A DNA stretch of 64,000 nucleotides from Kalmusia sp. IMI 367209 (Eukaryota; Ascomycota; Dothideomycetes; Pleosporales; Didymosphaeriaceae): assembly GCA_027946365.1 (NCBI GenBank), contig JAPEUQ010000012.1, positions 1,054,001-1,118,000 of the forward strand, read 5' to 3'. A program made the position numbers and the translations under genes. The notes under the pieces are model-generated. The model searched no databases, was not told where the DNA came from, and saw nothing but the letters and a program-made list of their open reading frames with translations. The first letter of the stretch is position 1. Each line of letters begins with the position of its first letter. Positions 40,068 through 54,357 of the stretch are shown one piece after another.

Positions 40068-41176
40068 CTACGCAAGTTCAACGCCATCCACAAAACTATC
40101 CTTGAAGCTCTCAATCGTCGTATGCGACCTCACCCAACTCTTTATCTTCTCGAAGTCCCGACACTTCTTACGTATCGAAAAATCGACTTTCAAATCGTCG
40201 GCGGGTCTTCCTGGCGGTGCATCGAGGATGAAGTATGGCGTTACGTCCGCTTGACATACCAAGTCCTGCCGCATGAGCTCGATGCAGTGATCTTTTTCAT
40301 TTTAGTCTCGAACAAGCATGGTGAAAGGAGGGAATGTCTTACCCACATGATCCCTCCTGTAGCTCTCTGATTGCCGCAAAATCTGAGGCAGGCGCCCTTG
40401 CGCCCTATATTCCTCTTTATAACTGATCTGCCTAAGGACATTCTACAGTGCCCACTTCGTCAGTGCATATCCTTAAAATCCCTAGAAATACTCACAAGGC
40501 AATGTATCTGATGGAAACCTAGATGAGCAGGTATCAAGTCAGTGTAAGTCAAGAGAGGTAGGGTGGAGAAAGAAGTCTTTCTCTCTCAACGAAGGAACAT
40601 CTACTTTGTACTCAGGTCTTACGTACCCCACCCTGACGCTGCTATGCCGCCACCGAACTTAGCCTCTGTATGATGCCACCTAGGGATTTTCCCCTCCGTT
40701 ATATTCAACAAATGTAATTTGTCGTTGGGAAGGTTGAACGCGCTCCCCTCAATCATCTCTTCCCATTGCCAATCTAGTTCTGGTGTAGGTGTGCCGCGGT
40801 AGGGGGAGGGTGCATCGAAAGTGCCTTGGAAGGTGGTGTCATAATATGTTACAGCTTCGAGAGCCGGTGCTGGGGACGATTAGCCCAGAAACGCGTTCTT
40901 CTTTCGGGTTGATTGAGGATTTGACAAACAATAGGTGGAGAGTTTCCGTGTACAAGCAGCATCCGAGGGCTCCGTGTATCGTGAGAGGATGAATAGCGTC
41001 AAAGAACAGAGGAAGATGGCAAACTGAAGTACCCAGCTCCACCAGCGGTATCGTTTTCTACTTTGGGGAAAGTTTGAGTCGTTGGCTTTGGGGAGGAAGA
41101 ATTCGTCTTCTTTCTCATTCTCTAGAAGGCCCTCTTCCACATCATCTCGCTCGTTTGCCTGATGGGGATACCCCAT
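40068..41176 (-). CDS. UstYa-family (DUF3328) protein 1, putative RiPP cyclising oxidase
   Basis: Five exons: 41176-40930, 40869-40627, 40518-40496, 40442-40343 and 40291-40068; phases all agree, 278 residues. A single transmembrane helix (VLQFAIFLCSLTLFILS) follows an acidic cytosolic head. After it comes LSTYSPALEAVTYYDTTFQG, the usual UstYa luminal start. The two HxxHC motifs are FHQIHCLNVLRQ (about 165-176) and HVDHCIELMRQ (about 203-213), the latter followed by CQADV. UstYa-family proteins carry out oxidative ring closure of ribosomally made peptides. The third exon is only 23 nt and encodes just the first HxxHC motif. It is transcribed in the same direction as the putative precursor gene 0.9 kb away. 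Confidence 0.85.
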
Positions 41177-42038
41177 CTCGAGAGATATCTATGACAATCT
41201 TGCGGAGACCACGGCCACTTTCAGGACAGACATACTTCTTTATAGGATCGCGCTAGCTTGAACAATTACCCCAGGTTCAGATTCGATAGCAGAATCTACT
41301 GTCATGTGGGGACCACGTCCCGCCGCTGAGAATGGACCAGGAGCGACGCGCGTAGTTGATTACAGGATTGCGGCAATCGGAAATTCATCTGTAGGATTAT
41401 GGTTATGTTCAGATAACCGAGGTGTATAGTAGCAGTAAGTCTGCATATGCAAGCTTACCAATTCGTAATCCTGGAAGCGAGTCACCCCCACCTCTTCGAT
41501 GGAGGCCCAGCATGCAGCCTCCTGAAATATTTCAATCTCGGCAAGATAATAGATCGGCTGAGAAAGTCGCGACGAGTTTCTAGCCTAGTGGCAGAGAAGG
41601 ATCTTAGTGGCAGCATCGACTACATGAGCTTTCTGGCCCCGACTCTGGGCGCAGACATCACATAGGCGAGCTTGAGCTTTTGCAATCATGTACATTAACA
41701 CATTTGCGTGTATAAGCATTTTGCATGCTACAATAGTTGATGGTCTTGATAAGGATGCGAGGAGTGGCATTGCTTTATACGACTATGGAAGCGGCGAACG
41801 AATGTACGAGGAGAAGGCTTGACATCGCCACCTTTTCCATCCGGCAAGCCATCATCTTTTCACCACCTGGACTTGAATACGAGAACCGATACTATCTGCA
41901 TCCCCTCCAAAGGACCGCCTCTCAATAACGACGTCTGCCCACCCCTACTTCCAGAACCCAGCGTTGAATATTCTAAGTTCCTCACAGACCCAATGCGACA
42001 AGTCTCATAAGAGAGCCAAATGCCACAACATTAGTCGT
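41177..42038. other. Intergenic between UstYa-like gene 1 and the precursor gene
   Basis: 862 bp. Short plus-strand ORFs (41447-41665, 41737-42010) show no signal peptide or motif; it is probably the promoter of gene 1 and the 3' flank of the precursor gene. Confidence 0.4.
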
Positions 42039-51697: not shown

Positions 51698-53512
51698 CTT
51701 GAAGACGTTTGAAATTTTTGGAATTTCCAGCCATTACTGTTTGCAATTGTAAGACACAACAGCTACTAAAGCGTAGTAGCTTAGGTGATCAAAGTTGTGG
51801 CTGTCCACGAAACGACGTTGCACATACAATATGCCTAATGGTTTGCTGAGTAAATACAAAACCACCGCGCTGTACTTACGCGGAAGTATGATTACGAATG
51901 TACGATTAGGAAGTGCTTATGCTTATGCTTACGCCAATCTTTACGCTTATGCACGTGATGTCGCCATGCCTTTCGCGTCTCTTTAGAGTGATCACTCTCT
52001 CTGTCGATTCTTTGTGGGGTATTTAGCTTGACGCGTGTACTTTCGATATAGGATTTACAGCGCTTGGCCGAACCCGGGCAGTGGACTTTCTATTCAGTCG
52101 GGCTACCCGTTTCTCTCACCGTACCCATATTTGCTATCGTCACATCGCCTTTTTCCCATATCAGGTCCATTCGCATGTGTTGCGTCACTTGACTAGTTTC
52201 TGCCAACTATATGTTTACTAGTTGGGTCGATTTGGCTGTACGTCATAGTTCCTCGTAGAGCAAGCCGACCATGACATGGCTATACCATTGATTAGCTATT
52301 CCATCGGTCGGTTACAATAAAGACATTCATTGTCACGATCCCGTCCATCTTGAAAAGCAGTATCCTATACATAGACCCATTAGACGAAACTTAGACACTG
52401 AGAACAGACTTTGCGGAAAGTACGCAGGTGTATCCAGAAGTGTGTTGACGATTTTGGATTACTGGCGGGTAACGGATAAGCTATGTTGAACAAGTCATCT
52501 TGCCAAAAGTTGGATGCGACGGAGAAACAGATACCACAAGATCCTGGTAAAGTAAAGGCAAATCAAGATTAGCCTCCCGAGTTATAGGTGTGAAAGGCAA
52601 GGGGTTTGTGAAGCAACCAAAATACTCTGAAAACATTGTGAAATCTTAAGCAACATTCATCAAGGGTCAACAAGCCTAGGTCGCAATATTTGTCGATTAG
52701 GTCTTCCCGGGTACCATAGGAGCCAAGCGGCATCGAATCGACTTTGGTCCTCTCGCGTTCGTCAATATATTCATTCCGCTCAAAGATTTAGTTGCGTCGT
52801 CCTAGGACAGAGTAAGCATTGCTTGTATGCCTTGTGATGTCAACGGGGTATACATGCAGCCGGTACTGCACCACAGCTATGCGATATTAGAGTTTAAGCC
52901 AATTACTAGGAGGACTATTCTCAGCGTTCCAAGTCTGATGATATGCATTGAAATCTGCCCAGCTGATCTTAGGAAGAGGATCTAAGCGAGCTCGAACCAG
53001 GAATCGGGTATCGCGTCACATGCGTAGAGTCGTTCGCCATGCTGAGCGGAAGGGTAAAAAACACGCAAGCCTTGTAGCGATTGGATCGCAACGACGTTGC
53101 ATCGATGCCAAAGTGCCAACGCTTTGGCAACCAAGCGCCAAGAAAAAAACGAGGGGCATGTGTCGCGCGAAAAGGATCTAACGAAAATGGTTTGGTGTAT
53201 ATGTATGAGACTGCAGAGGTGCCCTGCTAGGCTCTATTGTTGAGCCTCGTTGATTTGTTGATGTTATTGAGATCCACAGTCGCCTTGTTGCCTGCAGGTG
53301 AACACCAACCTGGGGGACGAACTGAAGTGGTAATTACTTCGAGCTTCCTATTCTAGTTTAATTAATTCTTATTCAAGTACGCAGCGGACTACTACATATT
53401 TATTAATTGGCGTAGCTGACTACTGTAGAAACTCACTCCATTCGAATAGCCCTAGCATTTCACTATTGCTAAATTAGTGATATAGACAATATCAATTTGC
53501 GTCTGCTTAAAC
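51698..53512. other. 1.8-kb intergenic region with GCTTAT-type short repeat
   Basis: A run of GCTTAT/GCTTAC units lies at about 51917-51951; in one frame it would encode alternating Ala-Tyr. Otherwise no gene is supported. The region separates UstYa-like gene 6 from the bZIP gene. Confidence 0.45.
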
Positions 53513-54357
53513 ATGGTCGATGAACCTCAGTTAGACAAAAGGAGGCGCCAGAATAGGGACTCACAGCGCCGCTTCAGTGAGAAATTTCTTCGACAAAGCT
53601 TTAGGAAAGCTAACAAACTATAGGAGAAAGGAACAAAACACGGCGTTCATGGAGCATGCCAAATGCTAACCACGAGCAACCCGGGGTCCTTACTTCCTCA
53701 TCAGCACCACTCGACTCAAATGCTAGTAGCACCTCGTCTGAACACGCTAACCCCTACATCTCGAGTGATTACTCGAGTCTGCTATCGCTCGAGAGCTGCT
53801 CTGAAGGAAATAATGATTGGCCGAGTAGTAGAGTGCATGCAACCCATCGCGAAGATGTGCTATATCGCCAGACAGTGCAGAGCAATGAGGCAAATCCTCT
53901 ACCGCAAGGACAGTTGAGCTTGCCACCTTTCAACACACAATTCTCCCTGGATGAATTGTCTATGCAAAGGGCGGATACAGACGCAAACTACCAAGAGCAG
54001 CAAGACTTCGGACAGGCAACTGGAGGAAGGAAAGACATACTTATTTCTCCAATATCACTGCTTGGTGCAGACGTGCGTATGGGTATGGAGCCCACGAAGC
54101 CAAGTCGATCTGAAGAAATGCTCCAGTCACTTAGGCCTAGGCGAAAATCGGGGTCTAGGGCCGAGCAGATGATATCGGATGTAGAGAATCTCTATGAATT
54201 CGGAATCAGTCTTTCGATTTTCCCAGAGGATCCATTGCTGCGGAAGTCGTTGAGAAGAATGAAGGAGCGATTCCGAACTTTGGTAAAAATAGGAGTTGCT
54301 TGGGATCAAAGAGAAACGTACGAAGGCTCTTCTCCACAAACCGACAGCGATGGATAG
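53513..54357 (+). CDS. bZIP transcription factor, candidate cluster regulator
   Basis: Two exons: 53513-53576 and 53624-54357; the 47-nt intron has a GTGAGA donor, CTAAC branch and TAG acceptor and joins two different frames in phase, giving 265 residues. The junction creates the basic region KRRRQNRDSQRRFRER, with the N-x7-R bZIP signature. A clear long leucine zipper does not follow, so dimerisation may be weak or differ. The rest is Ser/Gln-rich, with RRKSGSRAEQMISDVENLYE and LLRKSLRRMKERFRTLVKIG near the C terminus, possibly helical. Small proteins with a bZIP basic region and such a tail often lie next to secondary metabolite genes. Regulation of the neighbouring RiPP-like cluster is inferred from position only. 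Confidence 0.7.

What the first reader, a model, noticed from the sequence alone, without database searches (positions are those of the whole stretch)
40068..54357. Putative undescribed dikaritin-type RiPP gene cluster
A secreted repeat precursor with dibasic cutting sites lies among six genes that each encode a one-helix membrane protein with two HxxHC motifs, and a bZIP gene closes the group. This matches the logic of ustiloxin, phomopsin, asperipin and victorin clusters, where UstYa-family proteins crosslink Kex2-released peptides. The core seen here (PIGQFISIWYGEDG) is not one I know from a described pathway. The density, six HxxHC genes in 11.7 kb, is high.
Basis: partly seen in the sequence, partly recalled or inferred. 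Interest (0 to 1): 0.96.

Follow-up and report, generated by a model that had tools for sequence, protein, structure and literature searches.

The report
Fungal cyclic-peptide gene cluster candidate
A stretch of a fungal genome carries one gene for a secreted protein holding five copies of the same short peptide, next to six genes for membrane proteins with paired metal-binding motifs, so it probably makes a chemically cross-linked small peptide whose identity and role are not yet known.

Summary
A 207-aa precursor (42039-42830, minus) has a signal-like N-terminus and five copies of PIGQFISIWYGEDG between dibasic sites; the core copies show 72 silent and no amino-acid-changing pairwise differences, so the peptide is under selection. 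Seven database relatives share it (18 cores, 10 of 14 positions invariant); two come from named Pleosporales and hold one core each. Six neighbouring genes each encode one helix-like segment and two HxxHC motifs. Four are UstYa/DUF3328 (PF11807); two (44979-45881, 49853-50578) form a separate family below the Pfam cut-off. Ten members of it were detected in this genome, at six loci, all within 7 kb of a PF11807 hit; five of the six loci carry a repeat precursor. The 'bZIP' gene has only a basic region, below cut-off. No tyrosinase hit lies on this contig. Best reading: a dikaritin-type RiPP cluster with a core not found in the searched literature, a new member of a known kind, one of about ten such precursors seen in the genome. 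Crosslinking, co-expression and product are untested.

The parts
42039..42830 (-). Precursor gene (exons 42830-42738, 42676-42359, 42307-42191, 42134-42039): 207 aa, signal-like N-terminus, five cores PIGQFISIWYGEDG between dibasic sites; the three introns are phase 0 and each ends three codons before a core
42626..42667 (-). core copy 1
   Evidence: coordinates worked out by hand from the exon table
42527..42568 (-). core copy 2
   Evidence: coordinates worked out by hand from the exon table
42428..42469 (-). core copy 3
   Evidence: coordinates worked out by hand from the exon table
42257..42298 (-). core copy 4
   Evidence: coordinates worked out by hand from the exon table
42084..42125 (-). 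core copy 5; its C-terminal tail resembles, by eye, the end of the single-core precursors P0020/P0021
   Evidence: coordinates worked out by hand from the exon table
40068..41176 (-). U1: UstYa/DUF3328 protein, 278 aa, HQIHC + HVDHC
   Evidence: (PF11807 3.3e-45)
43342..44282 (+). U2: UstYa/DUF3328 protein, 279 aa, HSMHC + HIDHC; divergent from the precursor
   Evidence: (PF11807 4.4e-42)
44979..45881 (+). U3: second-family HxxHC protein, 214 aa, HRTHC + HYDHC, below the PF11807 cut-off
   Evidence: (E 0.11)
48252..48951 (-). U4: UstYa/DUF3328 protein, 213 aa, HQLHC + HWPHC
   Evidence: (PF11807 1.3e-18)
49853..50578 (+). U5: second-family HxxHC protein, 241 aa, single exon, HIAHC + HTFHC; the H and C of both motifs invariant in 14 relatives of 59-79% identity
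   Evidence: (no Pfam match)
50921..51697 (-). U6: UstYa/DUF3328 protein, 221 aa, HQLHC + HFMHC
   Evidence: (PF11807 1.6e-20)
53513..54357 (+). Putative regulator, 265 aa: bZIP-like basic region, no zipper seen, no ankyrin match; no paralogue at E up to 0.01 in the genome
   Evidence: (bZIP_2 E 0.49)
46360..47904 (+). Kinesin gene, 475 aa, inside the group; membership of the cluster unproven (probably a passenger)
   Evidence: (PF00225 6e-55)

Best explanation
A dikaritin-type RiPP cluster. The precursor enters the secretory pathway by its signal peptide, and the Golgi protease Kex2 cuts after the dibasic sites to free five peptides of about 28-36 residues (after removal of the basic residues) that share PIGQFISIWYGEDG. 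HxxHC proteins anchored by one helix, with their metal sites in the lumen, use a paired-HxxHC copper centre and O2 to activate C-H bonds of the core. They join side chains within it, most plausibly Tyr10 or Trp9 to a neighbouring Ile or Phe, and proteases trim the flanks before secretion. Shown here: precursor, repeats, selection on the core, enzyme families. Taken from papers on other systems: Kex2 processing, copper chemistry, lumenal placement, crosslinking. Inferred: that these steps occur here, and the crosslinked residues.
For: Five cores with 72 silent and 0 replacement differences over the ten pairs; 18 cores in 8 precursors with P, I, G, F, I, W, Y, G, E, D invariant (a pattern-free scan finds the same 18), including two named Pleosporales species. 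Four PF11807 enzymes over the cut-off, two of them (U1, U2) the direct neighbours of the precursor. A second HxxHC family whose ten detected members in this genome all lie 0.4-6.7 kb from a PF11807 hit; five of its six loci carry a repeat precursor. Published: a DUF3328 member (CctR) is a binuclear-copper, O2-dependent enzyme whose HxxHC pair is essential (PMC12435403); DUF3328 genes concentrate next to Kex2-processed repeat genes, and 65.6% of the repeats so accompanied contain Tyr against 38.2% of the others (PMC7329392).
Against: No transcript, protein or metabolite data. No tyrosinase hit on this contig, and no peptidase or methyltransferase among the nine cluster genes scanned. DUF3328 enzymes also hydroxylate, chlorinate or act outside RiPPs (passages in PMC12048977), so crosslinking is not certain. 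No convincing shared promoter motif: an 8-mer shared as widely as the best one arose in 14 of 200 shuffled sets and 40 of 200 random-segment sets.
Confidence: 0.8

Rival explanations
1. The precursor yields a linear secreted signalling or antimicrobial peptide (pheromone-like Kex2-processed repeat protein), and the HxxHC genes serve another metabolite or only decorate the peptide (hydroxylation, halogenation) without crosslinking it.
For: Most Kex2-processed repeat genes (6120 of 7878) have no DUF3328 neighbour (PMC7329392); DUF3328 enzymes can hydroxylate or chlorinate (PMC12435403).
Against: Here the precursor sits between U1 and U2 among six HxxHC genes; the core keeps F, W, Y and two Ile; almost all genes annotated as mating factors or pheromones (three exceptions) lack DUF3328 neighbours (PMC7329392 abstract).
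Confidence: 0.13
2. Two unrelated clusters abut: precursor + U1-U3 on one side of the kinesin gene and U4-U6 + regulator on the other, with separate products.
For: A kinesin gene separates the two halves (46360-47904), and nothing here shows the halves to be co-regulated.
Against: Each half contains one second-family protein (U3, U5) plus PF11807 proteins, and elsewhere in the genome several such genes lie around one precursor, e.g. three second-family genes and several PF11807 hits at C25; the repeat scan found no other repeat precursor in the 64 kb, though a single-core one would be missed.
Confidence: 0.12
3. The cluster makes a microtubule-directed cyclic peptide, and the embedded kinesin-13-like gene is its target copy or self-protection gene.
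For: Known dikaritins are antimitotic and ustiloxins act on tubulin (passages of PMC9233826); the kinesin lies inside the group and its best solved relative is KIF2C, a kinesin-13 (124 bits), while the best other kinesin exon of the genome scores 63 bits (single exons, so the two scores are only roughly comparable).
Against: Nothing shows the kinesin to be co-regulated or conserved with the cluster; no close duplicate of it was found, as a resistance copy would predict (best candidates only); the core does not resemble the known tubulin-binding dikaritins as I recall them. The one search that combined kinesin with such clusters (at least 4 of 6 terms) listed no paper naming kinesin together with UstYa or phomopsin (listing only).
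Confidence: 0.04
4. Pseudogenised or silent remnant with no product.
For: No expression data.
Against: All nine hand-made models are open with GT-AG introns, once GC-AG, though the models were chosen to be open; core copies show only silent change; relatives keep the core.
Confidence: 0.03

Closest known systems
Dikaritins (ustiloxin, phomopsin, asperipin-2a; victorin named alongside)
   Same: Signal-bearing repeat precursor with dibasic sites, several UstYa/DUF3328 proteins beside it; Tyr, Ile and Phe in the core
   Different: Different core; no tyrosinase hit on this contig and no methyltransferase or peptidase among the nine cluster genes; two of six HxxHC proteins fall outside PF11807 (whether described clusters also hold such proteins was not checked); product unknown
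Kex2-processed repeat proteins (KEPs) of Umemura 2020 (PMC7329392)
   Same: Meets the stated rule of three or more repeats of at least 8 aa between Kex2 sites after a signal peptide (signal by eye, not SignalP)
   Different: Relatives P0020 and P0021 carry one core only and would escape that rule
CctR, cyclochlorotine hydroxylase, DUF3328 copper enzyme (PMC12435403)
   Same: Single transmembrane helix and HxxHC(x)nHxxHC motif
   Different: U3/U5 family keeps the motif but lacks the two cysteines after it that are invariant in the PF11807 set, having three invariant cysteines upstream instead
Epichloecyclins (GigA)
   Same: Multi-core precursor thought to be Kex2-processed, crosslink between Ile and Tyr
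   Different: Separate class in the review; known here only from PMC9233826 passages, cores not compared
bANK regulators (ToxE, Apf2)
   Same: Basic region without leucine zipper in a peptide-metabolite cluster (PMC4109984 passages)
   Different: No ankyrin match in Pfam; no ToxE or Apf2 site in the promoters tested

Membership tests
Dikaritin | Precursor with N-terminal signal/leader and repeated cores | tested here: met
   signal peptide judged by eye, no predictor was run
Dikaritin | DUF3328/UstYa protein with two HxxHC motifs (class-defining enzyme in the 2021 redefinition, as quoted in PMC12048977) | tested here: met
   Four PF11807 proteins over the cut-off, each with two motifs
Dikaritin | Tyrosinase in the cluster (older five-gene definition) | tested here: not met
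   37 PF00264 hits in the genome, none on contig C4; PMC12048977 (passages) notes functional clusters lacking one or more of the five
Dikaritin | Methyltransferase and peptidase/transporter in the cluster (older definition) | tested here: not met
   None among the nine cluster genes by Pfam; of the flanks only ten ORFs were scanned, with a sugar transporter about 12 kb away outside the group
Dikaritin | Side-chain crosslinked cyclic product | not testable with these tools
   Needs mass spectrometry
Kex2-processed repeat protein (KEP) | Three or more repeats of at least 8 aa between KR/KK/RK/RR sites after a signal peptide | tested here: met
   Five repeats; rule read; signal peptide by eye
UstYa/DUF3328 (PF11807) for U3 and U5 | Score over the Pfam cut-off | tested here: not met
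   U3 12.7 bits against 25, U5 no match at E up to 1; of 13 family members scanned 2 match at E up to 1, best 0.076
UstYa/DUF3328 superfamily for U3 and U5 | HxxHC(x)nHxxHC after one transmembrane helix | tested here: met
   Helix and motifs of U3 and U5. Motifs invariant in the 13 aligned sequences; in the three paralogues left out of the alignment because introns split them, both motifs are seen by eye
UstYa/DUF3328 superfamily for U3 and U5 | Profile-level homology | tested here: inconclusive
bZIP transcription factor | Basic region plus leucine zipper over the Pfam cut-off | tested here: not met
   E 0.49, 11 bits against 22.3; match covers residues 3-28 only

The most novel reading that the evidence does not exclude
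U3 and U5 belong to a second family of HxxHC proteins, without a Pfam model and with a different cysteine scaffold, that works as a steady partner of UstYa proteins in repeat-precursor clusters (at all six of its loci in this genome): a two-family copper-oxidase machinery that mining by the DUF3328 profile sees only in part, although annotation by the two motifs alone, already advised in print, would catch it.
Probability: 0.35. Interest if true: 0.6.

Novelty: new member of a known kind. Interest (0 to 1): 0.5.

Why it matters
It adds a conserved peptide core (PIG[QS]FI..WYGED) to the candidate fungal RiPP repertoire and gives exact masses to look for. The same peptide family occurs as single-core and multi-core precursors, so repeat-based mining misses part of it. 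The U3/U5 family, found near UstYa genes at all six of its loci in this genome, points to a group of probable copper enzymes without a Pfam model and gives a second handle for finding such clusters.

Tried and rejected
Relatives in viral contigs: the scan matched 11 stretches, none a true relative. PDB by sequence for U2: no match at E up to 1. Promoter motif: GTAATCAT occurs four times in the 64 kb, all four in promoters of the group, but an 8-mer shared by at least four of six promoters arises in 14 of 200 shuffled sets and 40 of 200 random-segment sets, so it is not counted as evidence. ToxE, Apf2, AP-1 and TTACTAA sites are absent from the promoters tested; there is one TGACGT (U4/U5) and one YAP-type match (regulator). 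Regulator paralogues beside other clusters: none found. Kinesin as a recent duplicate: no close copy found. Weak Pfam matches of the precursor (E 0.00035 to 0.012, all below cut-off) taken as chance. The victorin cluster paper was not held. Two further papers seen as passages only: PMC12871659 advises annotating copper halogenases by two HXXHC motifs rather than by homology, which lessens the novelty of U3/U5; PMC8146201 mentions a UstYa-like gene in Parastagonospora nodorum and no RiPP.
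Full report
What is there. The window lies at G000:C4:1054001-1118000 of an unnamed 42.8 Mb genome in 30 contigs. I read 38500-56500 and built gene models by hand. The precursor gene runs on the minus strand from 42830 to 42039 in four exons; its first intron starts with GC, and all three introns are phase 0 and end three codons before a core. It encodes 207 residues: a signal-like N-terminus ending near AIA-IP (by eye), a first KR, then five units with the identical block PIGQFISIWYGEDG, separated by acidic stretches and KR, RR or KKR sites. 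Tandem Repeats Finder finds only one other array in the 64 kb, two copies of a 15-mer, and the protein-repeat scan finds no second repeat precursor in the window.

Is it more than chance? Among the five cores, 12 of 14 codons vary, and every difference is silent: 72 silent and 0 replacement differences summed over the 10 pairs. The copies have drifted at silent sites, so the peptide sequence is kept by selection rather than by recent copying (inference). Two protein searches found relatives: P0001 and P0002 (2 proteins at E up to 0.001 of 1673 candidates), then also P0017-P0021 with the profile of the three sequences (7 proteins at E up to 1; only the 8000 candidates sharing most words were scored). 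In all, 18 cores in 8 precursors including the window's keep P, I, G, F, I, W, Y, G, E and D at 10 of 14 positions; the others are Q/S, S/W, I/Q and G/E/D. That count used a search pattern that fixes six of these positions; a pattern-free scan for at least 5 of 14 identities returns the same 18. The relatives were themselves found by shared words, so more divergent cores may exist. P0020 is from Paraphaeosphaeria sporulosa and P0021 from a Pyrenochaeta species, both Pleosporales; each holds one core only, and its tail resembles the end of the window's fifth unit (by eye). Several database entries look like exons read past a splice site at the same place in the repeat, which is my reading of the sequences.

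The enzymes. All six neighbours have one membrane-helix-like segment (mean hydropathy 1.88-2.93 over 19 residues) and exactly two HxxHC motifs. U1, U2, U4 and U6 are UstYa/DUF3328 (PF11807) with 155, 145, 68 and 74 bits against a cut-off of 25. U3 scores 12.7 bits, and U5 has no match at E up to 1. U3 and U5 are 31% identical over 134 aligned columns (E 4e-14 for that single comparison). U5 has 14 relatives of 59-79% identity, none with a precomputed Pfam domain, and the H and C of both motifs are invariant in them. In a wider set of 13 sequences (U5, U3, five of the eight other paralogues found in this genome and six of the 14 relatives) the invariant residues are C91, G92, A98, C103, W112, C117, D119 and those of both HxxHC motifs; the three paralogues left out are split by introns, and both motifs are seen in them by eye. 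The PF11807 set of 11 (four from the window, seven from the same genome, several of them partial exons) has instead two invariant cysteines after the motifs. Only 2 of the 13 match PF11807 at E up to 1, the best at 0.076, against 11 of 11 in the PF11807 set, which was chosen by that model. A profile comparison gives probability 10% and E 0.0031 with both motifs aligned in register. So common ancestry is possible but not established. A preprint seen in passages advises recognising such copper enzymes by the two motifs rather than by homology (PMC12871659), so a motif search would find U3 and U5 even where the profile does not.

The genome. PF11807 gives 102 exon-level hits, or 55 loci when merged at 10 kb, with 2.7% of the genome within 10 kb of one. 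Searches with U3 and U5 find ten members of their family, at six loci including this one (best candidates only), all 0.4-6.7 kb from a PF11807 hit; if the six loci were placed independently, this would have a chance of about 4e-10. The real chance is larger if the families share ancestry and duplicated in tandem. I looked for repeat precursors around these six loci in the stretches held: five of six have one (this window; C25 near 98 kb; C26 near 1826 kb; C27 near 540 kb; C6 near 1156 kb), and at C29 none was found between 244 and 261 kb apart from 85 bases not held. Adding loci with PF11807 but no detected second-family gene (C3, C6 near 220 kb, C7, C27 near 875 kb, C30), I saw about ten different repeat precursors; the C3, C7 and C30 ones are tentative. 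The window's cluster is thus one of many in this genome, and its core matched nothing else there at E up to 1. The scan covered only flanks of part of the loci, each piece apart, so ten is a lower bound and no rate.

Borders and neighbours. The group lies between genes that I take for housekeeping: a CRAL/TRIO ORF at 37468-38865 on one side, a ribosome-biogenesis ORF at 54926-55753 and a GH47 ORF at 56947-58746 on the other (ten ORFs scanned). The regulator at 53513-54357 has a bZIP-like basic region only (E 0.49) and no paralogue at E up to 0.01 in the genome. Known bANK regulators also have a basic region without a zipper (PMC4109984 passages), but no ankyrin repeat was matched here. The kinesin gene at 46360-47904 matches PF00225 at 6e-55; its best solved relative is KIF2C with 124 bits, while the best other kinesin exon of its own genome reaches 63 bits (exon by exon, so only roughly comparable). 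The KVD loop of kinesin-13 (recalled) has no counterpart in the query in the printed alignment. I treat the kinesin as a passenger unless synteny shows otherwise.

How it most likely works. Published work on another member, CctR, shows a membrane-associated, dimeric, copper- and O2-dependent enzyme whose paired HxxHC motifs are essential and bind two coppers (PMC12435403, two of three text parts read). Kex2 processing and DUF3328 neighbourhoods mark these precursors (PMC7329392: abstract, section 6 part 1 of 2, sections 7 and 13 read). Applied here: secretion, Kex2 cleavage, oxidative joining of side chains around ISIWYG, trimming, release. Only the genes and the selection on the core are shown; the chemistry is inference.

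Membership and novelty. By the redefinition quoted in PMC12048977 (abstract and passages), a DUF3328 enzyme defines dikaritins, and this is met; by the older five-gene list, tyrosinase is not met on this contig (37 hits elsewhere) and no methyltransferase or peptidase was seen among the nine cluster genes. Five strings of the core appear in no held paper; five strings of its variants appear only in four papers that are unrelated by title (listing only). Supplementary tables could not be read, so the precursor may already stand in a list of predicted repeat proteins. Venturia inaequalis alone has nine such clusters (PMC9632046 passages), so the kind is well known. I therefore file it as a new member of a known kind, with the U3/U5 family as the part that may be a real addition; I did not check whether described clusters already contain such proteins.

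Noticed in passing
G000:C25 ~98.0-98.6 kb (L059): Repeat precursor with about 11 copies of TNIYPGIKYLGDEDAVEKR-like units near several PF11807 hits and three U5-type genes
   Followed up: partly
G000:C27 ~539.7 kb (L062): Repeat precursor with five copies of SVDQAFVNVAYFGLKEREA-like units near PF11807 hits and a U5-type gene
   Followed up: partly
G000:C6 ~1156.2 kb (L046, L065): Eight copies of AVAVGPIIEEAGEGYESKR-like units near PF11807 hits and two U5-type genes; a further HxxHC pair at about 1150.2 kb (L064) may be a third
   Followed up: partly
G000:C26 ~1826 kb (L015, L066): About six copies of APTVDEGFSKIIYKRE-like units beside a PF11807 hit and a U5-type gene
   Followed up: partly
L029, L030, L016, L012, L011: Further possible repeat precursors beside PF11807 hits where no U5-type gene was detected: SSPVPPLWDGGVEGQTEKSKR, TEFAPWYRATNILPASDDKKKR, ATYAPLVYTGGLK, DVDATYTSINWKK, QWYDISYIDKR
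   Followed up: no
G000:C7:87660-90016: Tyrosinase hits directly beside PF11807 hits, a more classical dikaritin arrangement in the same genome
   Followed up: no
46360-47904: Kinesin gene inside the group, closest by sequence to kinesin-13 among solved structures and far from the genome's other kinesins; its C-terminus has a Cys/His pattern like a zinc finger (by eye)
   Followed up: partly
43082, 44617, 49108, 51888: GTAATCAT occurs four times in the 64 kb, each time upstream of a gene of the group; not significant after allowing for the search
   Followed up: partly
33866-35425: Heterokaryon-incompatibility (HET) domain ORF upstream of the group
   Followed up: no
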